Assembly (NCBI RefSeq): GCF_034190915.1
Contig: NW_026947506.1
Coordinates: 11,965,501-12,029,500, forward strand
Source: Cavia porcellus
Lineage: Eukaryota > Chordata > Mammalia > Rodentia > Caviidae
DNA length: 64,000 bases
Reading direction: 5' to 3'
Shown here: one piece after another, positions 14,701-59,265 of the stretch
How positions within the stretch are numbered: the stretch's first letter is position 1
Layout: each line of letters opens with the position of its first letter
Made by a program: the position numbers and the translations under genes
The notes under the pieces: generated by a model
Seen by the model: the letters and a program-made list of their open reading frames with translations, nothing else
Told to the model about the DNA's origin: nothing
The model's database searches: none

Positions 14701-15554
14701 CATTTTCTTTTAGGTATTGTTTAATTTCTTCTTTAATTTCTTCTGTGACCCACTGATTACTCAAGAGTGTGTTATTTAGTTTCCATGTGTTTGCGGAATT
14801 TTTGCAGTATCTTTTGTCATTAATTTCTAATTTCAGAGCGCTATGATCCGATAATATGCAAGGGATGATTTCAACTCTTTTCCATTTGCTTAAATATGTA
14901 CTGTGAGCTAATATATGGTCTATTTTAGAAAATGATCCATGTACTGCTGAGAAGAATGTGTATTCTGATGTTGTTGGGTGGAACATTCTGTATATGTCTA
15001 TCAAACCCATTTGTTCACAGGTGTGATTCAGTTCTGTTATTTCTTTGCTCATTTTCTGTCTGGTTGATCTGTCCCTTGGTGTCAGTGGTGTATTAAGGTC
15101 TCCTGTTACAATTGTGTTATTGGTAATTTGAGTTTTCATTTCTGTTAATAATTGTTTTATATAACTGGGTGCTCTGGAGTTTGGTGCGTATATATTTAAG
15201 ATAGTTATCTCTTCCTCTTGGAGTTTTCCCCTTACGAGTATGTAGTGACCTTCTTTGTCCTTTATGGTCATTGTTGTTTTAAAGTTCACGTTGTCTGCAA
15301 ACAGAATGGCTACTCCTGCCTTTTTTTTGGATTCCTGCTGCATGAAAAATTCTTTTCCTTCCTTTGACTTTCAGTCTGTGAGTATCCTTCTGGGTTAGAT
15401 GGGTTTCCTGTAAACAGCATAGGGTTGGATTTTGTTTCTTGATCCATTCTGCTAGTCTGTTTCTTTTGATTGGTGCATTGAGACCATTTACATTAATGGT
15501 TATTGCTGTTAAATGCTGGTTAATTGTAGGAATGTTATCTCTCTGCTGTTGCAT
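11717..15554 (-). pseudogene. L1 ORF2 (endonuclease-reverse transcriptase), broken
   Basis: The region spans about 1279 codons, normal for L1 ORF2p. The AP-like endonuclease is at the N-terminus ([34 protein letters not shown]). The reverse transcriptase shows [26 protein letters not shown] and the catalytic FADDMILY. The C-terminus (WYFYTMEYYSAIKK) is present. It is inactivated by a frameshift near 15300-15340 and by in-frame TGA stops at 14602-14600 and 13225-13223. The segments on each side of both stops are in the same frame, so damage is light: a fairly recent but dead element. Confidence 0.9.
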
Positions 15555-33599: not shown

Positions 33600-34770
33600 G
33601 CCTTCACTAGATTAATTTATCATTGTATAAAGGTAAGGCAAGGTTCAGTGTCCTCCTGTTTAATAGTGCTAAAGGAACCTTTTGTACACAGGCCTTCAAG
33701 GATTCTTTTTCAAGCTTTTAAAGCAATTTAAGCCATTTGAAGGTAAGAGCCTCAGGGTGGCAATGAATTTGTTGGCAAATTTCTGAAAAAGCTCTCTCCC
33801 CATAATTCAGTAGCTCCTATAGCATTATTGCAATATAAATTATTTATAGCTTGCTTGCCCACAGCATCAGTATATTCTTAGAGCCACACCTGATGTTGGG
33901 TTTGAATGACAATAGTATGCACTAAGGCTTTCCACTCCAAAGGGTTCATTTCATAACCATGACTGATACCCTCAATAATGCCTATTACAAAAGTACTTTT
34001 AAGTCCATATTCCTTGACAGCCTTTTTAAAACTCTTTATCTTTTTTGTTTTTCTCTTTTGGAAGAGGGGATTCAATTTATAATCTTGCAGTTTCCAGGTA
34101 GGTGTTTATGCCACTGAGCTTAATTTGCAGGCCATTTTAACTCTTCAAACTGTTACTGAAAACCTTCAAAGTGGGGCTCTTGTCACTGATGCAAAATAGG
34201 ACAAGCAATTAATTCCCCATGTTGTTTAGCTTCTTGAGCCCCCTTTTGCATGGGAGTTAGAACAGGTAAAGTGTTGCCCAGAGGTTTTTCAAGGTTTGCC
34301 TCTTGTGGAGGCAGTGCCAGGGGAGGTGGAGAAGCACCAGAAGTGGTGCATCCATGAAAACTGGGAATCCAACCATGGCATGTTCCATGTGCCTGCCTGC
34401 CAAATATCACCTCAGCAAAGATACCAGGTGTGCAAGACAGAGATCAGAGCTCAAGGCTCCTCAATGCAGCAGTTTACCTATTTTTCCCAAACTCTCATAG
34501 TGACCACACCCACCTTAAGAACAATGATCTAGAATTTCCCACAAGAGCTGCACCAAAATATCTTTGGAAGTAACAGGGCTCACCTTCCTAAAGAAAAGCA
34601 GTTCTTTGATATGTTTCTGTTGCATTTCAGATATAGGATTCATCATGAATTCACAGGTGAAGGGATTTTTTTTAAGAAAATGAAGGGATTTTCCAAACAA
34701 AATGAAATAGACATGCTTTGGGGGCGATTTACTACCCCAGCAAAAGTAAGTCACCATTGAGAGCAGCCAT
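33600..34770 (-). pseudogene. ERV2 gag remnant (capsid region)
   Basis: The ORF at 34075-33878 reads STFVIGIIEGISHGYEMN, PLEWKALVHT and QHQVWL, which resembles the capsid region of betaretroviral gag. The upstream piece 34410-34183 is proline-rich, as expected for the matrix-capsid spacer. Stops and an ID insertion (34047-34134) break it. Confidence 0.6.
34047..34134 (-). mobile_element. ID-type SINE, degraded, within gag remnant
   Basis: GAGGGGATTCAATTTATAA, TTCCAGGTAGGTGTTTATGC and CACTGAGCTTAATTTGCAGG resemble a reversed ID core. Confidence 0.5.
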
Positions 34771-34782
34771 CTTCACTTTACA

Positions 34783-34800
34783 GTCCCTGTTTAGGTATCA
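34783..34800 (-). other. Decayed primer-binding site, tRNA-Lys type
   Basis: Three bases below the 5' LTR the minus strand reads TGATACCTAAACAGGGAC. Thirteen of 18 positions, including the last nine, agree with the tRNA-Lys3 primer site as I remember it, and the mismatches are transitions. Confidence 0.65.
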
Positions 34801-34803
34801 AGC

Positions 34804-35210
34804 TGTTGGGGTCCAGGCCTAGATCCTCAACCCCTCAAACAGGTGCAATGTGAAGGCCCAAAAGAATGAAACAAGTGATAAAATCTTTAGCGATGCAGGA
34901 GGATTAAATCCTTGGCAGAGCTCATAACTATTCAGGCCAGCTGGCTGACTGATGCTGAGCACCCCATATTTAATCAGAACAGGGAAGTAGTTGAGTGGAC
35001 AATGGAGAAAACCTGAGCAGGGTCTTGGGAGGGTTTCAAGGAACCTTCAGAGCAACAAATGATGCTAATTAAGGAAAACTATCCAGCAATTCTCCAGGTG
35101 GCCTCAGCTATGACCTATCATGCTCACTGAGTGTCTCCTCATTCTCAGATCAATCCTGCTCAGGCTATGCCAGAGCCCTGCACGTGTACTCAGCTTCAAT
35201 GGCTCTAACA
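34804..35210 (-). repeat. 5' LTR of the old ERV2 provirus
   Basis: It runs from TGTTGGGGTCC to GGCTCTAACA, 407 bp, with the primer site directly inside. It is the partner of 27327-27739. Confidence 0.7.
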
Positions 35211-35920
35211 AGTTTTTAAATAACTGCATGAATCACAAGTGCACATCACTCATGTCTCATTCAAACACCGCCACCTTCTGTCACTCCCAAACATAGCCTT
35301 TCTATCTTACTGAATACTGACAGACATTTGCCCTACCTCATCACATTCATGCTTAGTCACCATGCTCACCAGAAGAGAATATGGCAGTGTGAGCCAGGCG
35401 ATGCTGAGACCCAGGTAAAACTTTGTTTTTGGTCAATACTCTTTCTCAGCATGCATAATATTTTCATACCAAATGAGTATGAAATTCACTGTGGTGATAA
35501 TATGGAAAAATGAAAAATACAAGATGCTATAAGAAAATGAGAAAAGGTAATGTGAAATTCATTAGCTTAATTGAAGAGATGACATTTTACCTAGAGCTGT
35601 TTGAGTAACATAAGGAAGTTACTCCCACAATGTTAAAATTGCATTGATGGAAGAAGCAGTAGTTTGAAGCAAAGACATGAGGTTCTGCTGAGCACAGAAA
35701 CAGGTCATTGTTACACCTGTCTAAATGTGAACCCAAAAGGAGCAGGGAGGCTCTGAGAAACTTATCCCTCTTGTGCTTGTAGAAGTCTAGCAAACATTGC
35801 ACAGCCACTTAGGTTCAAGGCAAATTCTCGATGGAATAAGGGCAACCTATAGCTGAATTTTCATGAGTTCAGATAGGTCTATGCTGCTATCATAATTATT
35901 TTTGGGAAATCAGGTTGTGC
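35211..35920. other. No gene recognised
   Basis: Single-copy-looking sequence between the old ERV2 LTR and the young provirus. Only short random ORFs. Confidence 0.6.
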
Positions 35921-36570
35921 TGTTAGGGCCAACGCCGCAGGGAAAGAGACCCCAAGGACTCAGCTCTTGGTGAGGAAAAGAAAGTTTATTTCCATGCGCA
36001 TGGGGTCCCTCAGGCAAACGTGTGTGGAGGGGCCCCGAGGGGAATTTGTGTAGGGTTTTTAAAGGTACACGCAGGAGGCAAGCAAGTTTACAGAAGCAAA
36101 TCGCATTGGTTAATTTTGAGCGGCGCAGGACCTGGCTAATGCTGATTTGAGGGTCTGGGGCTGAGTAACCATGGAGACCGAGGGTCTTGGGTTGACCTTA
36201 GAGTGCCAGGTGCTCCCTGGTCCTGTTTATACAGTACATTCTTTTGCTTATCTCTATCTTTACAAAGAACAGAACATCTAGTGGCTAATGACTAGCAGAG
36301 ACATTCCTTTTGGCCCCGCTCTGACTATCTCCTGGGAAAAGGTTTAGGGAGTGAAGCACTCTTTACTGCTCTGTTTTGATAGCTCTGGGAAGTTAGGGAG
36401 TCAACTCTTTTATTCCCCGCTCTGGGGAGTTAGGGAGTTAACCCTTTTATTCCCCGCTCTGGGGAGTTAGGGAGTTAACCCTTTCATTCCCCGCTCTGGG
36501 GAGTTAGGGAGTTAACCCTTTCATTCCCCGCTCTGGGGAGGGGGTTGTAGCAGGGGGGTCGACTCTCACA
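35921..36570 (-). repeat. 3' LTR
   Basis: It starts TGTGAGAGTCGAC and ends GGCCCTAACA on the minus strand. U3 holds four 37-bp repeats, a CCAAT box at 36109-36105 and a TATA-like TTTAAAAA at 36063-36056. R/U5 holds AATAAA at 35990-35985. It differs from the 5' LTR at 36026, 36051 and 36241 by my alignment. Confidence 0.95.
36384..36531 (-). repeat. Four 37-bp direct repeats in U3 (3' LTR)
   Basis: Unit starts are at 36384, 36421, 36458 and 36495. Each unit carries GGGAGTTAGGGAGTTAACC-type sequence (the first is diverged). Repeats at this place in U3 are the usual site of retroviral enhancers. The units contain GTTAAC palindromes. Confidence 0.9.
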
Positions 36571-36582
36571 CTCCCCCCTTTT
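36571..36582 (-). other. Polypurine tract
   Basis: The minus strand reads AAAAGGGGGGAG directly against the 3' LTR start. It primes plus-strand DNA synthesis during reverse transcription. Confidence 0.92.
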
Positions 36583-36604
36583 ATTTTTCCAATGACTTTT
36601 AATC

Positions 36605-38374
36605 CTAAAGGTCCTGTATAGGTAAGGGGTCATATTGTTGGCGTAGCACCATAACTTTTACCTGAGAGATCTGAGCCCTCACAAATTGGGTTACTCGGTT
36701 AATGAGGCAAGGGGCTATAGCCATGACTATAATGAATCCGGCCAGGGGTCCCAGTAAAGGGAGAACATAGGGCAGGATTGATTCCCAGAAGGAAAACATT
36801 TTGGCTTCACTTGAAGGGGGCTCTCGAGATTTGATTTTCTCTCTCAGCTTTTCCATTGCATCTTTTACAATCCCAGTATGATCAGTGTAGAAACAACATT
36901 CTTCTCTAAGTGCAGCGCAGAGACCGCCTTTTTTTAAAAATAGAAGATCTAAGCCTCTTCTGTTCTGTAACACTACTTCAGATAGAGACGAGAGAGATTG
37001 TTGTAACGCAGTTATAGAAGTTTCTAAGGCCTGTAAATCTTGGTTTACTACTGCAAGAAGCTGTTGGCGAGACTGATGCCCAGTAATGAGGGCTGCTGTG
37101 TCAGTTCCTATCCCCCCAGCCACACCTATCCCCAATAGGACTGCTAGGGTCAGGGAGACAGGTTCTCGTTTATATCGACCTCCCATGAGGGGGAGTGTGT
37201 TAGGGGGGAGATATTTAATGCGTGGCATAAGGTCTATAAGGATGCAGGAGCTGCTGTCTGCAAGGAGGACGTTAGTGGAGACACAAGGAGTGAGCCCATT
37301 GGTACATAGCCAAAAGGCTCCAGTAGGAGGGACGAGGTACTGATCTTTGGGAAAGGAATTAGTGTGTGTGAGGCAAAGATGTTGCAAGCTTGTTGGCCAG
37401 TTATCAACTGCTCCTATACAAGTTTCTTGACCAGCGAGGCCAGGAAGGGGGAGAGTGTGGTATACTTGATTCCAATCGCATTGGCCGGGGTTGGGGGTTA
37501 GTGTATAAGAGTCATTTAGAGCGGTTCCCTCATAATATGGGGGATTAGGACTTAGACATAGCCAACAGGATTGGGGGAGATCAGGTCGGGTATGATTTAA
37601 AGCCATGTATGCTCCTTTAATCAAACTGAGTAGGTTAGAATGTGAATATTGAGGGACAGGTACGTGATCTGTCTGGAGTAGTGGAGCTTGAGAAACTGTT
37701 ATGGCTGAGGGACTTACTATGGTTGTTTGAACAGTAGTAACAGGATCTATAGTAGGCTGATTATATTTTGGCTTTAGAGTAAAGTTTGGGCCTATGGGCA
37801 CAAATGGGGCCTGCAGGGGAACCTTTTTTATAAGAATAAGGCTTCCCCTGTCTTTACCTGGCTCATAGACTCGAAGTCCCCAGGTGCGTCCTGTCAGCCA
37901 ACCTGGGTCCTCAGGAGTGGTGACAGTGATATTTAGAACCTGACAGGATCTCTGACCAGCCGGTGGGTAGTTATCTAGGCTGCATCTCGGCGGCCCCCAT
38001 GTCATTTTAAGGTGTTTATCGGGGAAGGCGGGTTGCCACCCTGTTGCAGCGGTTTCACAGCCCCAATAAGCACAAAAATATTCTCCTGGGGAATTACAAT
38101 ATGATCTACTCCCGGTTGGTGCGGGACAAAGATAAAAATGACTTTGTTTGGGACATTGGAGCCCTGGAAAGAACCAACAGGGTGTGGGCGCAAACCATGG
38201 ACTTCCTGATCCTTCCCAGGTGCTACCCACACGTGAGTCCCCCCATCGTATTAACGACCATTTCCAGGGGCGATGGGGGCTAGCTACAGTGGGGATTATT
38301 AATATAAGTAATCCCATTAGAGCCCGGAGGGTTAAAGTCTGGGGTCCCATACGGGTCATCTCAGAGGGACACAT
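36605..38374 (-). CDS. env: Env glycoprotein, intact
   Basis: The 589-codon precursor of a membrane fusion glycoprotein begins with a hydrophobic signal peptide (to about residue 31), followed by SPH at 32-34, a motif place important for fusion in gammaretroviruses. The surface subunit has FCAYWGCET (100-108), four N-glycosylation sites (148, 197, 260, 287) and the CWLC isomerase motif (270-273). RYKR at 400-403 is a furin-type cleavage site. The transmembrane subunit has a Gly/Ala-rich fusion peptide, the conserved immunosuppressive-domain region (about 469-486), CX6CC at 486-494, an anchor at about 533-557, and a tail with YDPL. It is somewhat short for the family, with a compact N-terminal domain. 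Translation would be from a spliced RNA. The ATG lies 22 bp beyond the pol stop, without the usual overlap. Confidence 0.95.
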   Translation of the reverse strand: MCPSEMTRMGPQTLTLRALMGLLILIIPTVASPHRPWKWSLIRWGDSRVGSTWEGSGSPWFAPTPCWFFPGLQCPKQSHFYLCPAPTGSRSYCNSPGEYFCAYWGCETAATGWQPAFPDKHLKMTWGPPRCSLDNYPPAGQRSCQVLNITVTTPEDPGWLTGRTWGLRVYEPGKDRGSLILIKKVPLQAPFVPIGPNFTLKPKYNQPTIDPVTTVQTTIVSPSAITVSQAPLLQTDHVPVPQYSHSNLLSLIKGAYMALNHTRPDLPQSCWLCLSPNPPYYEGTALNDSYTLTPNPGQCDWNQVYHTLPLPGLAGQETCIGAVDNWPTSLQHLCLTHTNSFPKDQYLVPPTGAFWLCTNGLTPCVSTNVLLADSSSCILIDLMPRIKYLPPNTLPLMGGRYKREPVSLTLAVLLGIGVAGGIGTDTAALITGHQSRQQLLAVVNQDLQALETSITALQQSLSSLSEVVLQNRRGLDLLFLKKGGLCAALREECCFYTDHTGIVKDAMEKLREKIKSREPPSSEAKMFSFWESILPYVLPLLGPLAGFIIVMAIAPCLINRVTQFVRAQISQVKVMVLRQQYDPLPIQDL

Positions 38375-38396
38375 AAGGGTAGTACTCTGAATAATC

Positions 38397-41300
38397 TCAG
38401 GGGGTCCTTCGGCGCAACTTTAGCTTTAGGGGGTTATCAGACCGTTTGAGTTCCCAGGAGCCGTCCACTGGTGCCGAGGCAGGCTTTAGGTGTGACGCGT
38501 GGATCCAAGAGGCGACTCCGTCAACCTTTACCGCTGTAGGAGTAGTCAATAGGACCTGATACGGTCCTTTCCAGCGAGGCTGTAGAGTCTCTTGTTGGTG
38601 GCGCCGGACGAACACAAAGTCTCCCACCTGGTACGGATGTGGCGCGGGGAACTCACTGGGAGCATAGGCCGAGGCTAGCTGCGTCCACACGTCCCTCTGC
38701 AGGTTGTCAAGGGCGATGAGCCTGTCAGACAGGGAGGTTGGCAACAAGGCAGCATGCTCAGTTAAGGGAGTGAGATCTCGAATGGGGGGTGGAGTGCCAA
38801 AAAGGACTTCGAAGGGAGTAAGGTTAGGGGGTTTGGTGGACGGGGTGTTTCGCGCGCGAAAAAGGGCATACGGCAGGAGCATCGTCCAATCTTTTAAGCC
38901 AGTCTCATGAGCCAATTTAGTGAGGGTCTCTTTAATAGTTCTATTCATTCTCTCTACCTGTCCTGAACTTTGGGGTCTATAAGCACAATGTAATTTCCAA
39001 TCAATCCCCAATATGTTGGCCAGTCCCTGACTTACCTTAGCCACAAACGCCGGTCCATTATCAGACCCTATTACCTTTGGCAATCCGAACCGGGGAAATA
39101 TTTCTTCCATCAATTTTTTTGTTACCACGGCAGCGGTTTCCTTTTTGGTAGGAAAAGCCTCAGTCCATCCAGAAAAGGTGTCTACAAAAACTAGCAGATA
39201 TTTTAGTCCGCATCGGGCAGGCTTAACTTCTGTAAAGTCCACTTCCCAGTATTGTCCAGGTCTGGTGCCGCGTAGCCTTTTGCCGGGGGCCAGCTTGGCA
39301 GGGTAGGCATTGGTCAATTGACATGCCTCACAATTAGCCACCACCCGATTGGCGACCTGACGTATGGCAGTGGGGGATGCCCCTGGGAAGTCTTGGCGTT
39401 GGGCCAGTAGGCTTAGCTTTTTAGCTCCCAAATGAGTGAGCCGGTGGGCCTGTTGTATGTAAGCAGTCAAATCAGGTGTTTTAGGGGTTTGGTTAATCTG
39501 AGCTTTCTCCTTTTGAGGAGAATCTTTGACATCAGTCACCAACATCTGTGAGTCTCCCATGGCTGCAGATTTTGCTGCCTGATCGGCCAGGTTGTTTCCC
39601 CTTGTGACGGGATCAGTCCCTTTCTGGTGGCTGTTACAGTGTATTATCGCCACCTTCTGGGGCAACATAACTGCAGCGAGCAACTGGAGGATTTCCTGTT
39701 TGTGTTTTATTTCTTTTCCTGCGGAGGTCAGAAGCCCCCGCTGGCGGTATATGGCCCCGTGGATGTGGGCCGTTGCAAAAGCATATCGGCTATCCGTGTA
39801 AATGTTCGCTCGCTTTCCTTTAGCGAGCTCTAGAGCCTTAGTCAAAGCAATCAGTTCGGCCTTTTGGGCCGAGGACCCGTCCTCTAGTCTGGCTGTCCAT
39901 ATAACATTGGAATAATCAGTCACAGCCGCCCCCGCATACCGCTTACCTTGAATCAAAAAGCTACTCCCGTCAGTGAAGTAGGTCACCTCTGCATTGGGTA
40001 GGGGGCAATCCAATAAGTCCGGTCGTATTCCGGCCTCTTCCGCCAAGACGTCCTGGCAGGTATGGAGGACGGGTTCCGAAGCTTCTTCCGGCAGCAGGGT
40101 CGCCGGGTTGAGAGTCACCGGGGGTCCAAAAGTTATCTTGTCCTTGTTGAGCAAGAGGCTCTGATAATGAGTAACTCTGGCATTTGAGAGCCACCTGTCT
40201 GGAGGCTGGCGGATGATGCTTTCTAGCGTGTGCGGGGCAATGATTGTTATTTTCTGTCCCAAAGTCAATTTGTCAGCGTCTTTAATGAGCAAGGCAGCTG
40301 CTGCGATGGCCTTTAGGCAGGGTGGCCACCCGCTTGCCACAGTGTCCAGTCTTTTTGAGAGGTAAGCCACCGGACGCCTCCATGGCCCAAAGGTCTGGGT
40401 CAGCACTCCTCTCGCTATTCCTTTTTTTTCTTCCATGAAGAGAGTAAAGGGCTTATCCACATTAGGAAGAGCCAGGGCCGGAGCGGACAGGAGAGCCCGC
40501 TTGATGGCATCAAAGGCCTGCTGGTGATCTTTTTTCCAGATAAAGGGAGATCCCCCCTTCAGTAACGGATATAGGGGAGCTGCCAAAGTTGCGAATCCGG
40601 GGATCCATAACCGGCAGAACCCCGCAGTGCCCAGGAACTCTCGTAATTGTTTTTGACTCTTTGGAGGGGGAATCTGGACCACAGTCTGTTTTCTGGCCTC
40701 AGTGAGCCACCTTTGTCCCCCTTTTAAGGAGTAGCCCAGAAAAATTACCTCTCGCTTACAAATTTGAGCCTTTTTTGCTGATGCCCTATACCCCAGGATA
40801 GCCAACTCACGTAAAAGGTCCTGAGTTCCGCTTGTGCAGTCACCCTCAGAGTCCGCAGCCAGCAGCAAGTCATCTACATATTGAAGAAGGGTGAGGCTTG
40901 GGTGTTGAGCCCGAAAGGGGGCTAAATCCTTATGTAGGGCTTCATCAAAGATGGTTGGGCTGTTTTTGAAGCCCTGTGGGAGGCGCGTCCAGGTTAGTTG
41001 TCCGGCGGACCCAGTCTCAGGGTCCGTCCATTCAAATGCAAATAAGGGCTGGCTATCTTTGTGTAAAGGCAAACAGAAAAAGGCATCCTTTAAATCCAGA
41101 ACAGTATACCAAGTCCTTGACGGATTTAACCCGCAGAGGAGATTATAGGGATTGGGTACGGTGGGGTGAATGTCTTCTACCCTACTATTGACCTCCCTTA
41201 GGTCCTGTACCGGTCTGTAGTCATTCGTCCCGGGCTTTTTGACCGGGAGTAACGGAGTATTCCATGCAGACCGACAAGGAGTTAATACCCCTTGGTCTAA

Positions 41301-41909
41301 AAGTCTCTGTATGTGCACCTTAATCCCTAGGTGAGCTTCTCTATTAATGGGATATTGCTTGACCCGAATAGGGGAGGCAGTGGTTTTTAAAGTAACCACT
41401 ACAGGCGGTTGCTGGCTTGCCAGCCCAAGTCCAGCCGTCTCGGCCCAGGATTCTTTAAAATCAGTTAGCCAGGCTGGGGCGATAGGCTGGGGATCCTGGT
41501 GGTCGTAGAGCCTATATTCATCTTCCAGTTTTAGAGATAACACCGTAACCATAGGTTGCCCAACCTTTGGGTTACGGAATGTTACTTGAGGTCCTTGGGG
41601 CTCAAAGGAAATCTTTGCCCCCAGTTTGGTTAATAAGTCCCGTCCCAGGAGGGGAGCAGGACATTCGGGAATAACCAGAAAGGAGTGTTTTACTTTTCCC
41701 TTGCCTAAGTCAACTGTGCGCTCAGTGGTCCACGAGCGATATTTGCTCCCGTTAGCCCCTTGAACTAATGATTTCTTAGTTGAAAGGGCCCCTAAGGGGG
41801 CTTGTAAGGCCGAATAAACAGCTCCCGTATCGACCTCGAATTCCACGGGAGTCCCCTCCACTTTAAACATTACCCTGAGCTCGGGGAGGGGATCCGAGCC
41901 CCGAAGTCT
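38397..41909 (-). CDS. pol: Pol: protease, reverse transcriptase, RNase H, integrase, intact
   Basis: Pol is read in the gag frame past UAG at 41912-41910. The first ATG is at 41870 (residues numbered from there; 1157 codons). Protease: VDTGA with Asp14, LLGRDLL 74-80. Reverse transcriptase: VLDLKDAFF (Asp259), LPQGF 297-301, YVDD 331-334. RNase H: Asp634, Glu672, Asp693, Asp763. Integrase: zinc site His809, His813, Cys847, Cys850; catalytic Asp878, Asp937, Glu973, with 35 residues between the last two. The GPY/F-type module (KGPY near 1101-1104) is at the C-terminus. No stop or frameshift occurs. It ends with TGA at 38399-38397, before env begins. Confidence 0.96.
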
Positions 41910-41912
41910 CTA
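41880..41912 (-). promoter_or_regulatory. Gag-Pol UAG readthrough signal
   Basis: The gag frame ends in an amber codon (GAC TAG AGA). About six bases later comes CGGGGCTCGG, and CCCCTCCCCGAG follows, able to pair as a GC-rich stem. Gammaretroviruses use a 3' pseudoknot at this place to insert an amino acid at UAG in a minority of translations. The pseudoknot itself is inferred and was not folded. Confidence 0.8.
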
Positions 41913-43544
41913 GTCTTCTTCATCTAGGGCGAGCATGGGGGCTCGGGATTGCTGTGAGGACTGTCTTTCTCGTTCTTCTTTGGCCCGTTTCTTTTTTAAC
42001 TTTTCACAGTCTTTGATCAGGTGTCCTTTTTCCTTACAATATGCACATTGATCAGGGTCTAATGGAGGGCGAGTGGGCTTTCCCTTTTCTGGCTCAGGTT
42101 TTCCCTGAATAACTGTGGCCAACATCTTAGTTAATTCCTTGTTTCGTCTTTTGTCCCTAGCTAACTCTTTCTCTTCCTCTGTCTCCCGCTTATAGTAGAC
42201 CTTTTCAGCTTCCTTAACAAGATCCCTCAGAGTCAGGTCTTGGAGACCATCTAGCCTTTGGAGCTTACGTCTTATATCAGGGGCCGATTGTCCTATAAAG
42301 GCCATAGCTATCGAGCCTTTTCGGCCTTCCTCCTCAGGGTTAAAAGGCGTATATCGCCAGTAAGCTTCCATCAGGCATTCTAGAAAAACTGAGGGAGTCT
42401 CAGTAGGTCCTTGGGTAACTTCTCTTACCTTGGCCAGATTAGTGGGGCGCCTTGCGGCCGCCCGGAGACCTGCCATTAGAGTCTGGCGATAGATAGAAAG
42501 ATGCTGCCTACCAGCAGGTGAGTTGGGGTCCCAGTTGGGGCGCTTTAAGGGGAAGAAGTCATCGATCTGGTCTGGTCTCTGGGTGGGTCTGCCATCCTCT
42601 CCGGGAACAGCTTTCCGGGCTTCCAGGAGGATGCGGTCTCTTTCCTCGGTGGTGAACAGGACCCCTGGGAGCTGTTGACAGTCGTCCCATGTGGGTTGGT
42701 GGGAGAACATAACAGAATCCATTAGACCTGTTAGCTTAGAAGGATCATCAGAAAAAGGAGGGTTATTGTTTTTCCAGTTATAGAGATCTGAGGTAGAAAA
42801 AGGCCAGTACTGTAAAGCGGGCATCTGCCCTCCATCTGTCCCATCGTCTATCATGGGCCCATAGGGACGGAGAGGGAGGGCAACGACTGGATCCTCAGGC
42901 CGTAGCTTGCTCCGAGTGTTCTGGGCTGGGCCCGTGGGCCCCGGAGGTGTGGGCTCGGGGCAAGCCATCGCAGGGAGTGGGGGATATAGAGGGGACGTGG
43001 GTACCGGAGGAGAAGAGGAATTTAGCTCAGGTGAAGAGGGGGCTGACGGAGAAGCAGCACTCGATTCGGACGAGGAGGCTGGAGGAGAGAGTGGGTACGG
43101 GGGAGGTTGAGTCGGCTGAGAAGGAGGAGGCTGGTCATAGTCGAGTAAGGGTAGATCAGGCTGAGACTCGGGCAGGACCGGAGCCGAAGTGGGAGGTCCT
43201 TTCAGAGCTAAAAGCTTTGGTACAGATGAGTCAGAAGGGGGAAGAAAGGATTTTACCCATAATGGGGGTTCCTCCCTGAGGTCCTGCCATACCAGGATGT
43301 AAGCGACTTGATCAGGGTGCCCCCTTCGTCCGGGGCGGAAGATGACGTCCTTAACTGCTAGAATGAGGGGCAGATGAAAAGTCCCCTCTGGTGGCCACCC
43401 CACAGAGAAAGCAGGCCACTCAGTCGAGCAGAAATCCTGCCACTTACTCTTCTTGACCTGCAAGGAGAGATCGTGAGCCCTCTTCCGCACCTCCGACCAA
43501 TGGTCGAGGGTGAGGGACAATGGGGATGAGGTCGACTGTCCCAT
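41910..43544 (-). CDS. gag: Gag polyprotein, intact
   Basis: The 544-codon structural polyprotein begins MGQ, an N-myristoylation signal for membrane targeting. Matrix is followed by a proline-rich spacer with two late-domain motifs, PPPY (147-150) and PSAP (166-169), which recruit NEDD4-type ligases and TSG101. Capsid starts near 225. It contains LQYWPFSTSDLYNWK and the major homology region (about 378-402, QGPTETPSVFLECLMEAYW). Nucleocapsid has one CCHC knuckle, Cys500, Cys503, His508, Cys513, in a Lys/Arg-rich stretch after a charged helix (452-470). ATG 43544 is the first ATG of this frame, because TAG stands three codons upstream. That stop also rules out a direct in-frame N-terminal extension from the leader. 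Confidence 0.96.
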   Translation of the reverse strand: MGQSTSSPLSLTLDHWSEVRKRAHDLSLQVKKSKWQDFCSTEWPAFSVGWPPEGTFHLPLILAVKDVIFRPGRRGHPDQVAYILVWQDLREEPPLWVKSFLPPSDSSVPKLLALKGPPTSAPVLPESQPDLPLLDYDQPPPSQPTQPPPYPLSPPASSSESSAASPSAPSSPELNSSSPPVPTSPLYPPLPAMACPEPTPPGPTGPAQNTRSKLRPEDPVVALPLRPYGPMIDDGTDGGQMPALQYWPFSTSDLYNWKNNNPPFSDDPSKLTGLMDSVMFSHQPTWDDCQQLPGVLFTTEERDRILLEARKAVPGEDGRPTQRPDQIDDFFPLKRPNWDPNSPAGRQHLSIYRQTLMAGLRAAARRPTNLAKVREVTQGPTETPSVFLECLMEAYWRYTPFNPEEEGRKGSIAMAFIGQSAPDIRRKLQRLDGLQDLTLRDLVKEAEKVYYKRETEEEKELARDKRRNKELTKMLATVIQGKPEPEKGKPTRPPLDPDQCAYCKEKGHLIKDCEKLKKKRAKEERERQSSQQSRAPMLALDEED

Positions 43545-43683
43545 GACGTTCTATTGTCACAGGGCGGTTAACGCAAGCGCGGTACAACAAATAACCTAAC
43601 ACAGCACCCACGACACACAAAACAATCAGGCCGGCCACTTCATTCACATGCATACGCATCAGTTTCACTCCAAATGAGACACC
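43444..43683 (-). CDS. Small leader ORF with one transmembrane segment, overlapping gag
   Basis: The frame is open from 43683 to a stop at 43446-43444, with ATGs at 43659 and 43653 (about 71 codons). It encodes a hydrophobic run VAGLIVLCVVGAVLGYLLY followed by basic and proline-rich sequence. It overlaps the first ~100 bases of gag in a different frame. Gammaretroviruses such as MuLV make an N-terminally extended membrane form of Gag from the leader. Here the membrane segment is not in frame with gag, so it is either a separate small protein or a relic of that leader. Expression is unproven. Confidence 0.45.
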   Translation of the reverse strand, partial: GVSFGVKLMRMHVNEVAGLIVLCVVGAVLGYLLYRACVNRPVTIERHGTVDLIPIVPHPRPLVGGAEEGSRSLLAGQEE

Positions 43684-43813
43684 TTACAGGGTGTCTCCAG
43701 ATTGGCCCGGGCGGACCACAGACTGGGAATCGAAATCCCCCAGATGAGTCACCTCAAAGGGTGTCTCCAGATTGGCCCAGACGGACCACAGATTGGGAAT
43801 CGAAATCCCCCAG
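43674..43813. repeat. 70-bp tandem duplication in the proviral leader
   Basis: 43674-43743 and 43744-43813 share GTGTCTCCAGATTGGCCC, GGACCACAGA and GGGAATCGAAATCCCCCAG. They differ at a handful of sites, so the duplication is older than this integration. It lies in the region where packaging and dimerisation signals and the splice donor are expected. A donor-like GTAAGG is at 43687-43682 on the minus strand. Confidence 0.9.
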
Positions 43814-44019
43814 ATCGATAGGGAGACCCTATCGCAGATGGTGAACCACGGAAACCGTGTGGGGCGTCCCCCAGTCACCAGGGAACAGAGTATGAAACAG
43901 ATAACAAAAATTGCCCCTAGATTGGAGCCGTATGGCTCGGGGCGTAAACACCGGTGGTATGAAAAGCGACCAGTCGTACTCACCCGTAGAGCCGTTGGGG
44001 TCACCTCCCGTGAGACGTG
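43684..44019 (-). other. Open leader frame without ATG, with a signal-like hydrophobic run
   Basis: The frame is open from 44019 to TAA at 43686-43684 but has no ATG (GTG at 44004). It contains LGAIFVICFILCSLVTGG. It is in the same frame as the small transmembrane ORF just downstream, separated by that TAA, which lies inside a splice-donor-like GTAAGG. Non-AUG initiation in the leader is known in MuLV, but nothing here proves translation. Confidence 0.25.
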
Positions 44020-44022
44020 CTA

Positions 44023-44040
44023 ATCTCGCTGGAGCCTCCA
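44023..44040 (-). other. Primer-binding site, best match tRNA-Thr
   Basis: Three bases inside the 5' LTR the minus strand reads TGGAGGCTCCAGCGAGAT. From memory of mammalian tRNA 3' ends this fits tRNA-Thr(UGU) with at most one mismatch. tRNA-Gln fits with about two, and tRNA-Pro, common in gammaretroviruses, fits poorly. Confidence 0.7.
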
Positions 44041-44043
44041 AGA

Positions 44044-44693
44044 TGTTAGGGCCAACGCCGCAGGGAAAGAGACCCCAAGGACTCAGCTCTTGGTGAGGAA
44101 AAGAAAGTTTATTTCCATGCGCATGGGGTCCCTCAGGCAAACGTGTGCGGAGGGGCCCCGAGGGGAATTTGTGCAGGGTTTTTAAAGGTACACGCAGGAG
44201 GCAAGCAAGTTTACAGAAGCAAATCGCATTGGTTAATTTTGAGCGGCGCAGGACCTGGCTAATGCTGATTTGAGGGTCTGGGGCTGAGTAACCATGGAGA
44301 CCGAGGGTCTTGGGTTGACCTTAGAGTGCCAGGTGCTCCCTGGTCCTGTTTATACAGTACATTTTTTTGCTTATCTCTATCTTTACAAAGAACAGAACAT
44401 CTAGTGGCTAATGACTAGCAGAGACATTCCTTTTGGCCCCGCTCTGACTATCTCCTGGGAAAAGGTTTAGGGAGTGAAGCACTCTTTACTGCTCTGTTTT
44501 GATAGCTCTGGGAAGTTAGGGAGTCAACTCTTTTATTCCCCGCTCTGGGGAGTTAGGGAGTTAACCCTTTTATTCCCCGCTCTGGGGAGTTAGGGAGTTA
44601 ACCCTTTCATTCCCCGCTCTGGGGAGTTAGGGAGTTAACCCTTTCATTCCCCGCTCTGGGGAGGGGGTTGTAGCAGGGGGGTCGACTCTCACA
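44044..44693 (-). repeat. 5' LTR with promoter
   Basis: Its sequence equals the 3' LTR except for three substitutions. On the minus strand the order is U3 repeats (44654-44507), CCAAT at 44232-44228, TATA-like TTTAAAAA at 44186-44179, a predicted start about 30 bp later, and AATAAA at 44113-44108. It drives genomic RNA synthesis towards lower coordinates. Confidence 0.95.
44507..44654 (-). repeat. Four 37-bp direct repeats in U3 (5' LTR)
   Basis: Same four units as at 36384-36531, offset by exactly 8123 bp, with no copy-number difference between the two LTRs. Confidence 0.9.
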
Positions 44694-44697
44694 GTGC

Positions 44698-45369
44698 ATC
44701 CTACATTTTTCTTCGTATCAGCAACATCACTAAAATACCTGAGAGACTTGCAAATTATTTGTCAATATAAAATGACTGCCACTGTGAGTGCATCCTTTAG
44801 TGATAATTTAGGTACACAGAGGTCAGACAGCATAGGCTGCAAAGGCTGATTTTCAGGTGACTGGCAGCACCATGCCAGGCTCCTAACACACCTACTTCTT
44901 GCCCGTGCAACACACAAGGTAATGGCTTGATAGTGGTGGAGGATCTATCAACAGTCTTCAAAACCAAATTATTCATATAGCTGGGTTTCACTAAAGAGAA
45001 AAATGACATATAACATTAGGTAACTAAATACTTTCTCATGTCTCAAAAATGTCACATCCTATGCTTTCCCATCTGTTATAGTCAGGGTTTGCAAGGAAAG
45101 AGGCTTAATATGGAACTTATAATTGATAAGATAATTTTAAAATATTCACCACAGAAAGTCAGATTGAGAGAGATGTAGAGCTTTTCAGATACTAGAGACC
45201 AAAAAATACAGCTGAGCAATTGAATGCTATGACAATATCCAGGACAATTACAGCTGAAGAATTAGAGCCCATGGCAAGGACCATCAAAAGTTTACTTGGA
45301 GACCTAGAGGCACTTACAATGTCTCATGCAAATTTCAGTTAAGGTTGTACACTAGGAAGGCTCAAAGTT
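44698..45369. other. No gene recognised
   Basis: Provirus flank with short random ORFs only. Confidence 0.5.
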
Positions 45370-45800
45370 CAGTGTTGGAGGCTAGAAACTCTGTTCCCTT
45401 GGTCATAGGATCTGTGCCACCATGCTGAGTGATCAGTACTGGAGCCAAAATATGAAGCTCAAGATAAGGGCCAAAGATCTGCTAAAGGGAACAGTAGCCA
45501 TGCAAAGTAAAAATGAGGATCTGACCTCCTCCTCTGATGATGATGGCTGAGTTCATATCTGGAAAACCAGTGTTACCAGCTTCTCCATGAAAATCAACAG
45601 CCCAGCTGCTTTCCCTATAGTTCTTTAATGCTGTTTTAAATAATCCTTCAATGGATGTTCTGTCCCAAAACCATGATGACTTCATTCACTGGGTGATCCA
45701 AGTTGACCATTACTAAGCGGGCCACAGCACCAGAGCACTTCTTTAGATACTTAAAATCCAAAACAGACTTTATACCACTTAATATATTATAGTGGTCATC
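45370..45800 (-). pseudogene. Processed-pseudogene-like fragment, parent not recognised
   Basis: Minus-strand frames give protein-like stretches KKCSGAVARLVMVNLDHPVN, then TALKNYRESSWAVDFHGEAG and FPDMNSAIIIRGGGQI, and after an in-frame stop FGPYLELHILAPVLITQHGG and DPMTKGTEF. The run of ordinary-looking globular sequence across stops and a frameshift, without introns, suggests a retrocopy. I do not recognise the family. Confidence 0.4.
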
Positions 45801-46261
45801 AGGTCTGCTTCACATAAACAACAGTGACAAAACCTGAGGCTCATTCTAATGAAATAATCAGGAACACAAATCTTCACAAAGTAGTCTTCACATCTGTTTT
45901 GACAAACCTCTCACTGAAACTATGTGATATGTTTCCATCTGTGTGTCCTACATACTACATAAATGTGGGCATTTGAATGAAACTATAGACAGGGTTATTG
46001 ACCCTCTGATTATCCCAGGAAATTTTAAAAATCTTTTCTAAGGAAAGTAGAAAAAGAAACAGTTATGTACACCTATGTTTCACTGCAGTACAGTGACAGC
46101 GCTGAACCCAGGAGAGAATGTCACGAGGATGTGGTATGCACATCACCACCTCAACAAGGCTGAGGTTTCTACAGATGCTGGAGGTAAAAGGTGGAAATAG
46201 TTTAAGAGCAAAAACAGTTGAAATAAAATATGCTAAATATGCAGTTACTACACCAAATCTA

Positions 46262-46400
46262 AACTAGGCCTGGTGGCTCTTGTGTGGTGCCCAGTATTTG
46301 AGACACTGAGGAAGAATTGTTTGAGACCACTCTGGGTTATAAAATGATTTCAAAGGCAGCCTGAACTTAACAGCAACATGCTTCCTCCAAAAGAAAAATA
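46262..46400 (+). mobile_element. B1-like SINE, degraded
   Basis: AGGCCTGGTGGCTCTTGTG, CAGTATTTGAGACACTGAGG and GGCAGCCTGAAC follow the order of a B1/Alu-type left arm, ending in an A-rich tail. Confidence 0.65.
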
Positions 46401-47884
46401 TATCAAATCTAATGAACATAGTAGTGTACTAGTGATGGCCTTGTGACATTAGCATGACTATCACATTTATAATGATCTGTAGTCTACTAGGAAACCTAAC
46501 TTACAGCCCATTTCACAATAAAATGTCACTCCATTTACCAAATGGAGTACACTGGTGAGTATTTATTGTTCTTCATTGGTATTTGGTGGTGATGGTGCAG
46601 TGCTTGCAGCTGCTCTCCACAGAAAAATGACTATTGCTGCAGTAACAGGAATCTGCATGAATCACTGCAATATGTCCTTAACTCTTTGGGGAAGAGATAC
46701 CCTAAAGGAAGCACTGCATTAATTAGAATTACTAATTTTAGTCTTTTGAATACTTTAAAAACTGACTTCACAAGTAATTGAACTGCTTACCTACATTTCC
46801 ACCAAAAAGGTTAAATGGTCCCTTTTCTCCTGTAGTCTCAGGTAGGTACCTTAGATCTTGTGGTGATTTGTTCTCTCTGCAATGAAATGGTGTCCATAAT
46901 TGTGTTTCTCTATTGTGCAAAAATGCTCATTAGTTCTTCTGGTATTTCTTGGCAATTTGTACATATTCTGAAAAATGTGTGTTCCTTTCACGTTCCTATT
47001 GGTTTTACATGTTAGCTGTCAGGGAGTAACAGGCAAAATTTCTCTCATTCTGTAGTTTATTTCTTCATTTTTTGGTTTGAATTTTGTGGCTTCTATGTTT
47101 ATGCAGGAGGATTAATATCTTACAAAGTCTTTTTGCTTGTTGTCACTCTATCTTATTTTCTACACAAAATAGCAGCAATAGCATTAAGAAAAATGTTTTT
47201 TAATACCTCTACATTCAGAACATGGAAAGTGGCACTTTCATATTTCACTATGTTTTGCTCTACTAGAGGCATATTTGAAAATGCTGCACAAATTACCAAA
47301 AAAGTACATTTCATGAGTGAAAGAAAAACCACAATTTGTATTGGTGATTCTTTTGTCCTACTGTACATTTATATTCTTGACCTCAACTTACTTGTTTACC
47401 TAAACTTCAAATGCAGGGATAAAAACAACTGCTTCACACTCTGCTAAATCATTTAGCAGTTGCCTCCCGAAGTCAGCTTCAAAGCCGTGATCATCCCATC
47501 TCATCCTCTACTGATGCTGGGTCTAAAGGAATCACCTTTAGCATGATCTTTATAGGTAACTCCTTACGAATGCAATTATTTAAATACAACATGATCAAAA
47601 ATTGCATACTTTTTGTTAATTTTTATAAAATAACAAGGAATATAAAAGTGACAATTCCACTGTATTCAATACAAGAACGAATGGGTTAAATTGAGAACTG
47701 CTCCAATAATGCTCAGGATGGTCATTGCATAAACAAATGTGCTTCCCAAACGATGCTTGGGGATAACTGCTAGGTGTCCAAGTGACAAAAGGACAACTAC
47801 TGATGTGTAATTGTGAGTATTAAAAAATGTTGACGCTGGGGGGAAAGGGAAGAGAACTAAAGCATTAGTCTATATCTGCAGAAC
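46401..47884. other. No gene recognised
   Basis: AT-rich. The 104-codon ORF at 47133-47447 is low-complexity and has no domain. Confidence 0.5.
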
Positions 47885-55036: not shown

Positions 55037-55858
55037 CTATGGCTGCTGAATGAGTCTCCACTTGCTTACATAGCCAGTAGTTCTTCCCAGTGCAAATTCT
55101 TTTATGTGTTTTGCAATGACTGTATGTGGTAAAAGCTTTGCCACATTGTTATATACATAGGATTTCTCCCCAGTGTGAAGTCTTTGATGTATTTTAGAAT
55201 ATCCATATGTGGCGAAAGCTTCCCCACATTCTTTACATACATACGGTTTCTCAAAAGTGTCAATTCTTTCATGTATTGGACAATGAGCATTTCTGCTGAA
55301 ACCTTTCCCACATTCCTTACATAATATAAGTTTTCTGCCCAGTGTGAAGATTTCCATGCATTATGCAATATGTACGTGTGCTCAAACCATTCTCACAATG
55401 CTTATATACACTGGGTTTATCTTGAGTGTGAACTTTCATGATGCTTACAATGTCCATGCTGGGTAAAAACTTTCCCACATTACTTACATAGGGTTTCTCT
55501 CCAGTGTGAATTTTTTCATGCTGTTTACAAACTCTGTGTGTGGTAAAAGCTTTTCCACATTGCTTACATACATAGCATTTCTCTCCAGTATGAATACTTT
55601 CATGTTCCTTACAATGTCCATGTGTGGTAAATGCCTTCCCACATTGCTTACATACATAGGGTTTCTCTCCAGTGTGAATTTTTTCGTGTTGCTTACAAAC
55701 TCCATGTGGTTTAAAAGCTTTTCCACATTGCTTACATACATAGGGTTTTTCTCCTGTGTGAAATTTTTCGTGTTGCTTACAAACTCCATGTGGGTTAAAA
55801 GCTTTTCCACATTGCTTACATACATAAGGTTTCTCTCGTGTGAATTCCTTCATGTTTC
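55037..55858 (-). pseudogene. Decaying C-terminal zinc-finger tail
   Basis: After the frame break at about 55838, four good fingers continue in a second frame (for example KPYVCKQCGKAFNPHGVCKQ). Near 55480 a 4-bp loss and near 55435 a 2-bp loss scramble one finger. A finger lacking its first Cys pair follows, and then, in a third frame (55357-55037), ILCKECGKGFSRNAHCPIHE and YVCKECGEAFATYGYSKIHQ. These fingers cannot be part of the protein from the main frame. Confidence 0.8.
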
Positions 55859-57293
55859 TTACAATATGCATGTGTGATAAAAGCTTTCCCACATTGCTTA
55901 CATACATACGGTTTCTCTCCAGTGTGAACTCTTTCATGATATTTACAATATGCATGTGTGTTAAAAGCTTTCCCACATTGCCTACATACATAGGGTTTCT
56001 CTCCAGCGTGAATTCTTTCATGTATCTTACAATATGCACGTGTGGTAAAAGCTTTCCCACATTGCTTACATACATAGGGTTTCTCTCCAGTGTGAATTCT
56101 TTCATGTTCCTTACAACTTCCAGGTTGGCTGAAACCTTTTCCACATTGCTTACATACATAGGGTTTCTCTCCTGTGTGAATTCTTTCATGTATCTTACAA
56201 TATGCACGTCTGGTAAAAGCTTTCCCACATTGCTTACATACATAGGGTTTCTCTCCAGTGTGAACTCTTTCATGATATTTACAATATGCATGAGTGTTAA
56301 AAGCTTTCCCACATTGACTACATACATAGGGTTTCTCTCCGGTGTGAATTCTTTCATGTTCCTTACACTGTCTAAGTGTGGTAAAAGCTTTCCCACATTG
56401 CTTACATACATAGGGTTTCTCTCCAGTGTGAATTCTTTCATGCTCTTTACAATGTCTATGTTTGGTAAATGTTTTCCCACATTGCTTACATACATAGGGT
56501 TTCTCTCCAGTGTGAATTCTTTCATGTTCCTTACAACTTCCAGATTGGCTGAAACCTTTCCCACATTGTTTACATACATAGGGCTTCTCTCCTGTGTGAA
56601 TTCTTTCATGTTTCTTACAATATGCACGTCTGGTAAAAGCTTTCCCACATTGCTTACATACATAGGGTTTCTCTCCAGTGTGAAGTCTTTCATGATCCTT
56701 ACAATATGCATGTGTGTTGAAAGCTTTTCCGCATTGCTTACAGACATAGTGTTTCTCTCCAGTGTGAATTCTTTCATGATTTTTAAAATATTCACATGTG
56801 TTAAAAGCTTTCCCAAGTTGCTTACATATATACAATTTCTGCCCATTGTGAAGTTTTTCATGGATTACACAATAAGTACGTGTGCTGAAAGCTTTCTCAC
56901 AGTGCTTACACTTATAACGTTTTTCTCCAGAGTGAAGCCTTTCATGTACTTGACAATATGTACGTGTTGTAAAAGCTTTACCACATTGCTTACATATGTA
57001 GGGTCTCTCTTCTCTGTGAATTCTTTCATGTTTCTTACAAATTCTATGTGTGGTAAAACCTTTCCCGCATTGCTTACATACATAGCATTTCCCTCCACTG
57101 CAATATTTTTTAGTGATCTGAACACTGTGGTCTGTTTCTTTCACATCCACATTACCTTCTGCAGTACAAAGGAATCCTTCTTTACACTGATTCCAAGATG
57201 TATGTCCATAGGATTTCCCTAACGTGTTATTTCTGTAAAGAGATAAATCACATATAGTATTGACAACCATATTACTAAGCTTTTTTTGGAGAG
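55816..57293 (-). CDS. C2H2 zinc-finger exon, 15 in-frame fingers, truncated by frameshift
   Basis: The last exon of a KRAB zinc-finger gene (DNA-binding nuclear repressor family). The ORF has ATG at 57270. Just above lies a possible splice acceptor (TTTTGTTCAG, exon from about 57293) and in-frame QKKLSN. A linker region of about 60 residues (SLYRNNTLGKSYGHTSWNQC) is typical for the family. Fifteen C2H2 fingers follow with HTGEKPY linkers; finger 4 has lost its second Cys (CKQLGKAF). Nearly every finger has Cys at the position of the conserved Leu, as in FTTHAYCKKHERIH. Fingers 5-9 and 10-14 are near copies. A 2-bp deletion at about 55838 (CTCTCGTG where others have CTCTCCAGTG) ends the frame at 55818-55816. 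The protein may still be functional. Confidence 0.85.

Positions 57294-59265
<1,972 letters not shown>

What the first reader, a model, noticed from the sequence alone, without database searches (positions are those of the whole stretch)
35921..44693. Apparently coding-complete young gammaretrovirus-like provirus
Gag, pol and env are each open from start to stop. All the catalytic and structural motifs I checked are in place: DTGA, YVDD, four RNase H acids, HHCC and D,D-35-E integrase residues, CCHC, furin site, CX6CC. LTRs, primer site and polypurine tract are present, and the 4-bp target duplication is exact. Most genomic ERVs are broken. This one may be expressed and may be polymorphic in the species.
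Basis: partly seen in the sequence, partly recalled or inferred. Interest (0 to 1): 0.9.

Follow-up and report, generated by a model that had tools for sequence, protein, structure and literature searches.

The report
Guinea pig retrovirus with swapped spikes
The guinea pig genome holds dozens of nearly identical young copies, many of them unbroken, of a mouse-leukaemia-type retrovirus, including the one in this window, and some copies pair nearly the same core protein and membrane anchor with a very different, predicted receptor-binding region, which likely means that the virus changed its cell receptor while it was infecting the germ line.

Summary
On the minus strand at 35921-44693 lies a complete gammaretrovirus-type provirus: 650-bp LTRs with 3 differences, exact 4-bp duplication, open gag, pol in frame after a UAG, and env. 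Contig lengths identify the assembly as Cavia porcellus. It is not a lone survivor: of 74 scored env matches, 57 are full length at 96-100% identity (52 stop-free). In 36 LTR pairs, substitutions range from 0 to 1.6% (11 pairs none), and 30 insertion sites show exact 4-bp duplications. Seven paralogous empty sites show the pre-integration state. The window copy lies in a ~13-kb near-identical tract shared with paralogs, so it probably spread there by gene conversion; its LTR differences are not a safe clock. Elsewhere the family was amplified inside a macrosatellite. Strikingly, two proviruses with 97% identical Gag and 97-98% identical TM carry a predicted receptor-binding region only 45% identical; synonymous divergence jumps from 0.09 (TM) to 1.4-2.2, so the surface region was exchanged by recombination. 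Expression, infectivity, receptor use and polymorphism between animals are untested. The kind is known (PERV, MLV, KoRV); this guinea pig family is an unusually rich new example.

The parts
44694..44697 (.). target-site duplication (5' LTR side), GTGC
   Evidence: 4-bp overlap of flank matches in empty paralogs
44044..44693 (-). 5' LTR, 650 bp
   Evidence: identical over 649 compared columns to the 5' LTR of the provirus at C23:12.04 Mb
44505..44663 (-). 37-bp tandem repeats in U3 (about 4 units; 1-5 counted by motif in the LTRs)
44023..44040 (-). primer binding site, tRNA-Thr type (identity of the tRNA recalled)
   Evidence: sequence
43978..43986 (-). splice-donor-like site in the leader
   Evidence: pattern match only
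43670..43815 (-). 70-bp direct repeat (2.1 copies) in the leader
41910..43544 (-). gag, 544 aa, ends in UAG
38397..41909 (-). pol (protease, RT, RNase H, integrase), 1170 codons in the gag frame after the UAG
36605..38374 (-). env, 589 aa (compact SU, RYKR cleavage site, TM with CX6CC)
37676..38275 (-). N-terminal SU region (residues 34-233), predicted receptor-binding part, exchanged between copies
   Evidence: fold matches
36571..36582 (-). polypurine tract
35921..36570 (-). 3' LTR, 650 bp
36382..36540 (-). 37-bp tandem repeats in U3
35917..35920 (.). target-site duplication (3' LTR side), GTGC
33800..47215 (.). near-identical tract shared with the copy at C23:12.27 Mb (and, right of the provirus, with 12.65 Mb, whose left flank is partly deleted), inside a segmental duplication that differs by about 1.4-1.8% outside it
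   Evidence: flanks and LTRs compared base by base, the inner part by gag, pol and env protein identity only

Best explanation
This is a coding-complete provirus of a gammaretrovirus family that has dozens of young, often open copies in the guinea pig genome, some of which pair nearly the same Gag and TM with a strongly different, predicted receptor-binding region, which likely reflects repeated germline infection by a virus that swapped its surface region by recombination. Shown: intact reading frames, LTRs and target duplications at many sites, empty paralogous sites, LTR pairs with 0-1.6% substitutions, a mosaic env, and copies in a segmental duplication and in a macrosatellite. Inferred: that the virus works like other gammaretroviruses (UAG read-through for Pol, cleaved Env, TM-driven fusion), that it moved between cells as an infectious virus and not only by retrotransposition, and that the exchanged region changed receptor use. 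The window copy probably reached its three paralogous positions by gene conversion and duplication of a single insertion, not by three integrations.
For: Structure and frames. Host: contig lengths of C8, C33, C16 and C2 equal those of Cavia porcellus contigs of four protein hits. Copies: of 74 scored env rows 57 are full length at 96-100%, 52 of these stop-free; gag 80 scored; pol 40 scored, each covering at least residues 2-1170, 37 stop-free. LTR pairs: 36 measured, 11 without substitutions, range 0-1.6%, gaps and repeat number not counted. Exact 4-bp duplications at 30 distinct sites by my reading. Empty sites. SU exchange: dS 1.39 and 2.21 in residues 34-200, 0.97 and 1.15 in 243-403, 0.09 in TM between the window env and two type-2 env, while Gag at those loci is 97% identical. 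Purifying selection in env: 30 nonsynonymous to 24 synonymous biallelic changes against 2.4 to 1 expected, P 0.013.
Against: The 20 env copies fetched for the selection test, of 56 other full-length young rows, were taken mostly from the top of the list, which favours conserved copies; split by frequency the test is weak (P 0.043 shared, 0.078 singletons). Pol of the type-2 loci was not compared, because they were not among the 40 scored. The fold downstream of the UAG is not better than shuffles. No env acceptor was found by my pattern. Complementation or retrotransposition could also give many young copies. No expression, particle or population data.
Confidence: 0.85

Rival explanations
1. 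A retrotransposing ERV family with no extracellular phase: copies spread within germ cells, and env is merely carried along and still young enough to be open.
For: LTR pairs are so young that few stops are expected anyway; four LTR pairs are only 5.7-6.0 kb apart, so copies with shortened bodies exist, and the one measured has 3 of 576 substitutions, so it was recently mobilised by others.
Against: Nonsynonymous env changes are depleted (biased sample); recombinant SU types imply co-packaging of different viruses.
Confidence: 0.2
2. The different SU is the product of rapid adaptive change in one lineage, not of recombination.
For: Receptor-binding regions evolve fast in gammaretroviruses (general knowledge).
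Against: Synonymous divergence, which selection on the protein should not raise, is 15-24 times higher in residues 34-200 than in TM of the same gene.
Confidence: 0.03
3. Falsely duplicated assembly: the copies at C23:12.27 and 12.65 Mb and the C226 array are assembly artefacts.
For: The two C23 copies are 99.97-99.98% identical over flanks; C226 is a 315-kb contig made, where sampled, of repeats.
Against: The 12.65-Mb copy has its own 4.3-kb flank deletion; array units differ, and the 39.8-Mb contig C33 carries the same satellite with proviruses; about 29 other sites have their own flanks and duplications.
Confidence: 0.1
4. The provirus was inserted before the segmental duplication and the three copies were later homogenised, so the insertion is older than its sequence suggests.
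For: The near-identical tract (2 mismatches in 2,500 bp on one side) lies in a duplication with about 1.4-1.8% differences.
Against: The two next-closest paralogs, at 97-98%, lack the provirus, and the LTR pairs of the two other copies differ by 1 and 0, though homogenisation could hide age.
Confidence: 0.3

Closest known systems
Porcine endogenous retroviruses (PERV-A, -B, -C)
   Same: Gammaretroviral backbone, U3 repeats, several intact copies in one domestic species, and env classes that differ in SU (PERV facts recalled; a PERV-B Pol is 74% identical in RT).
   Different: The guinea pig Pol falls in a separate clade with rabbit, bat, anteater and shrew ERVs; Env is 589 aa against 638-659 aa for most PERV or pig entries (one has 566); copies also lie in a macrosatellite.
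Murine leukaemia viruses (ecotropic, xenotropic, polytropic)
   Same: Gene order, UAG between gag and pol in one frame (recalled for MLV), all enzymes; exchange of the env receptor-binding region by recombination is described for polytropic MuLV (PMC10536682, passages seen).
   Different: Env about 41% identical; RT about 71%; another primer tRNA (recalled).
Koala retrovirus and gibbon ape leukaemia virus
   Same: Young invasion with receptor subtypes (general knowledge; starts of abstracts).
   Different: Env 38-40% identical; their Pol was not placed by name in my tree.
ERVi elements (Wang and Han 2023, PMC10435555)
   Different: The window copy fails their identical-LTR rule (3 of 650 differ) and its polymorphism is untested.
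env-Cav1 syncytin-like gene of guinea pig (Vernochet 2011)
   Same: Retroviral env in the same host (reference and table entry seen in PMC9367772; the paper itself not read).
   Different: Its title describes it as conserved in Caviomorpha; not compared by sequence here.

Membership tests
Gammaretrovirus (genus-level type) | RT within the gammaretroviral clade with MLV and PERV | tested here: met
   (46 rows): 9-row clade with Oryctolagus, Eptesicus, Tamandua, Sorex, an unnamed contig and two ENA contigs, SH-aLRT 97, within larger starred sets that hold PERV-B and Rauscher MLV
Gammaretrovirus (genus-level type) | gag and pol in one frame separated by a UAG | tested here: met
Gammaretrovirus (genus-level type) | read-through structure downstream of the UAG | tested here: inconclusive
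   z-score +0.32; pseudoknots are not scored by the tool
Gammaretrovirus (genus-level type) | Env with CXXC in SU and CX6CC in TM, furin site | tested here: met
Gammaretrovirus (genus-level type) | 4-bp target duplication | tested here: met
Gammaretrovirus (genus-level type) | production of infectious particles | not testable with these tools
   no expression or culture data
ERVi (actively invading ERV, PMC10435555) | identical LTRs | tested here: not met
   3 of 650 differ in the window copy; 11 of 36 family pairs have no substitution, though 7 of these 11 differ in length
ERVi (actively invading ERV, PMC10435555) | intact gag, pro, pol, env | tested here: met
ERVi (actively invading ERV, PMC10435555) | insertional polymorphism among individuals | not testable with these tools
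   empty sites found are paralogs, not alleles
Receptor-switching gammaretrovirus group (works like PERV or MLV subgroups) | different SU on one backbone through recombination | tested here: met
   (Gag and TM; pol of type-2 loci not compared)
Receptor-switching gammaretrovirus group (works like PERV or MLV subgroups) | different receptors used by the SU types | not tested
   needs binding assays

The most novel reading that the evidence does not exclude
The guinea pig germ line is in the middle of an invasion by a receptor-switching gammaretrovirus: at least three receptor-binding regions, compact and nearest in sequence to those of bird-genome retroviruses, ride on one mammalian Gag-Pol-TM backbone, and the host genome multiplies the proviruses further through gene conversion in zinc-finger clusters and through a 12.7-kb macrosatellite unit.
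Probability: 0.3. Interest if true: 0.8.

Novelty: new member of a known kind. Interest (0 to 1): 0.57.

Why it matters
Guinea pigs are common laboratory and pet animals; a 2015 survey listed no active ERV for the species (PMC4333357, Table 1, passages seen). A young family with many open copies, several surface types, empty paralogous sites and copying routes that need no infection lets one ask directly how receptor switching, reinfection and host recombination each contribute to germline invasion, and whether laboratory guinea pigs express retroviral proteins. It also suggests that LTR divergence can mislead as a clock inside recombining clusters.

Tried and rejected
Searching env in viral contigs found nothing. 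A read-through structure by simple folding: not supported. GlycoGag upstream of gag: an in-frame stop follows after 2 open codons. LTR clock for the window copy (point estimates 1.05 and 0.51 My at two recalled rates): not used as a date because of the shared 5' LTR; but the match to the neighbouring provirus does not run on cleanly, since LTR plus leader have 3 mismatches in 1,020 bp, so conversion of the 5' LTR is likely, not shown. A bird-type origin of the receptor-binding region: free trees put it next to bird-genome Env and TM next to mammalian Env, and its best hits among the listed Env are of that set, but AU tests reject neither alternative (RBD held with mammals p 0.63, with a higher likelihood than the free tree; TM held with birds p 0.32), so it is only a lead. 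Identity of the 3,854-bp satellite: no Rfam match, no open stretch over 103 codons. Papers on a guinea pig gammaretrovirus: none found in this open-access library.
Full report
The observation. The element is on the minus strand: 5' LTR 44044-44693, gag 43544-41910, pol 41909-38397, env 38374-36605, 3' LTR 35921-36570. The LTRs are 650 bp, begin TG and end CA, and differ at 3 of 650 positions, all transitions; GTGC flanks both sides. Gag ends in UAG and Pol continues in the same frame for 1170 codons without a stop. Pfam finds matrix, capsid, protease, RT, RNase H, integrase core, MLV-type integrase C-terminus and the TLV_coat envelope. Sequence comparison with solved structures covers matrix, capsid, nucleocapsid, protease, RT, RNase H, integrase, part of SU and TM. 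G+C and CpG of the provirus stand out from the flanks. Small extras: about four 37-bp repeats in U3, two 70-bp repeats in the leader, a splice-donor-like site at 43986. Against a perfect picture: folding downstream of the UAG is no better than shuffles, and my strict pattern found no splice acceptor before env.

Host. Gag matches Cavia porcellus LOC134474549 at 537 of 544 residues, and Pol matches Cavia LOC106026990 at 940 of 945 aligned residues. The window lies in contig C23 of a 3.145-Gb assembly. Contigs C8, C33, C16 and C2 have exactly the lengths that the protein searches give for the Cavia porcellus contigs holding LOC106026990, LOC134474549, LOC111753915 and LOC134473219. The assembly is therefore the guinea pig's.

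The family. An env search of the genome scored 74 of 5,175 candidates: 57 rows cover residues 1-589 at 96-100% identity (52 without a stop), 2 are partial at 97%, and 15 have 69-71% identity. A gag search scored 80 of 15,990 candidates; a pol search scored 40 of 18,199, each covering at least residues 2-1170 at 99-100% identity, 37 without a stop. All counts are lower bounds. Of the 57 env rows, 43 have a scored gag row in the expected place; leaving out contigs C226 and C33 and three duplicate copies gives 33 loci, of which 23 have both gag and env full length and open. Reading against these by hand, 13 of the 33 also have a scored, open pol. No copy is singled out here.

Age and mode of spread. 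LTR pairs were compared at 36 proviruses (10, counting one tandem provirus; 26 of 31 tried): 11 pairs have no substitution and the range is 0-1.6%. Gaps were not counted; repeat number often differs, and only 4 of the 11 pairs have equal length. The 36 are not all independent: three share the C23 insertion and five the satellite insertion on C33. Five of the 31 gave no pair (a missing, truncated, cut-off or deviant LTR). By my reading of the printed flanks, exact 4-bp duplications are found at 25 of 31 loci (four of them one satellite site) and at 7 further distinct loci, so with the window's own there are 30 distinct sites. Of the rest, one has a 5-bp repeat, one mismatched flanks, and four could not be read. 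At recalled neutral rates of 2.2 and 4.5 per billion sites and year, a 650-bp pair without substitutions has an upper bound of about 1.3 or 0.6 My. Among 21 env copies (the window's and 20 fetched of 56 other full-length young rows, mostly high-scoring ones; two of the 20 have a stop) there are 30 nonsynonymous and 24 synonymous biallelic changes where 2.4 to 1 is expected under neutrality (P 0.013; shared changes alone 0.043, singletons 0.078). This favours reinfection over pure retrotransposition, with the caveat of biased sampling.

The window locus. The provirus sits in a segment with many paralogs, next to a zinc-finger array. Its right flank (1,500 bp; 40 scored of 3,517) has matches at C23:12.01 (itself), 12.26, 12.65, 12.83 and 12.46 Mb at 97-100%, then at 88-90%. 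The left flank (40 scored of 2,226) behaves alike, except that 12.65 Mb is missing, as its deletion predicts. At 12.83 and 12.46 Mb the two flank matches overlap by exactly 4 bp, and the same holds for five paralogs at 87-89% on C53 (two), C42, C123 and C5: seven unoccupied sites with one copy of the target. The copies at 12.27 and 12.65 Mb carry the provirus. Against the first of them the window shows 2 mismatches in 2,500 bp to the right of the provirus and 6 in 1,963 bp to the left, but about 1.4% and 1.8% further out on the two sides. The 12.65-Mb copy lacks about 4.3 kb next to its 3' LTR, and the 12.27 and 12.65 copies are 99.97-99.98% alike in their flanks. The simplest reading is one insertion in one paralog, transfer of a tract of about 13 kb to another by gene conversion, and a later duplication; homogenisation of older copies is the rival. 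The window's 5' LTR is identical over 649 compared columns to that of an inverted provirus 24 kb away (C23:12.04 Mb), while its 3' LTR equals those of the 12.27 (5') and 12.65 copies. In LTR plus leader the match to the neighbour has 3 mismatches in 1,020 bp. So the three LTR differences are likely imported and not a safe clock.

The satellite. Contig C226 (315 kb) consists, in the stretches sampled, of a 3,854-bp repeat. In this repeat the family inserted with ATTT duplications; the combined unit then repeats: of 16 steps between 17 env rows, 14 are 12,672-12,712 bp. The three scored gag rows on C226 all have stops, while 12 of its 14 scored pol rows are open. A related array with proviruses lies on C33. 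A tandem LTR-body-LTR-body-LTR provirus occurs on C36. Expansion of an HERV-K provirus through human pericentromeres is a precedent (PMC4425911, title and start of abstract seen); amplification of MuRVY on the mouse Y is recalled.

The surface swap. Eleven of the 15 loci with a 69-71% env have a scored gag row, at 88-97% identity. For two of them (C41 and C17, Gag 97%) env DNA was compared with the window's. TM is 97-98% identical in protein and dS is 0.09; residues 243-403 are 77-78% identical with dS 0.97-1.15; residues 34-200 are 45% identical with dS 1.39 and 2.21. C41 and C17 also differ from each other in residues 34-200 (59%, dS 1.68) while TM is 98%. A jump in synonymous divergence within one gene means exchange by recombination. 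At least three types of this region thus share nearly one Gag and TM; pol of these loci was not compared. The predicted structure (46 sequences, mean pLDDT 69.9; 13 of the 16 ten-residue blocks of residues 31-190 at 75 or more) has the receptor-binding domains of FeLV-B and Friend MLV as best solved matches, so the region is most likely the receptor-binding domain; that the types use different receptors is inferred.

Relatives. In RT the guinea pig family lies in a clade with ERVs of rabbit, big brown bat, anteater and shrew, an unnamed contig and two ENA contigs of 8.6-8.9 kb (81% in RT), beside the set with PERV-B. Env is 35-43% identical to the 45 other Env aligned with it and sits on a long branch. 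Free trees place the receptor-binding region near bird-genome Env and TM near mammalian Env, but AU tests do not reject the alternatives.

What is known. The 2023 genome-mining paper on invading ERVs (PMC10435555; passages seen) reports 412 elements in 123 vertebrates and thanks DNA Zoo for Cavia porcellus data, so guinea pig elements may be in its supplements, which I could not read. A 2015 survey lists five guinea pig ERV entries and none active (PMC4333357, passages seen). Searches of this library for a guinea pig gammaretrovirus found no description; most subscription journals are not held. Verdict: real, ordinary in kind, unusual in copy state and in its exchange of the surface region.

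Noticed in passing
window 55125-57097 (minus): Array of about 23 C2H2 zinc-finger units of 84 bp whose frame changes between ORFs 55816-57315 and 55317-56864, so probably a decayed zinc-finger gene.
   Followed up: no
window 9614-10549 (+) and 11717-15370 (-): L1 elements in opposite orientation: a 311-aa open ORF1-like frame and ORF2-like pieces (names recalled).
   Followed up: no
window 57671-57743 (+): tRNA-Ala-like stretch read as a tRNA by ARAGORN and Rfam; looks like an ID-type SINE (SINE type recalled).
   Followed up: partly
L028, L095-L103 (C226) and L105 (C33): 3,854-bp macrosatellite of unknown identity that hosts proviruses; no Rfam match.
   Followed up: partly
L021-L023 (C36:1.528-1.545 Mb): Tandem provirus with three LTRs and two bodies between one pair of TAAT duplications.
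   Followed up: partly
proteins P0247, P0248, P0130, P0132: Gag and Pol of two unnamed ENA contigs of 8,607 and 8,870 bp; their Pol is the nearest found outside the guinea pig in RT; their source is unknown.
   Followed up: no
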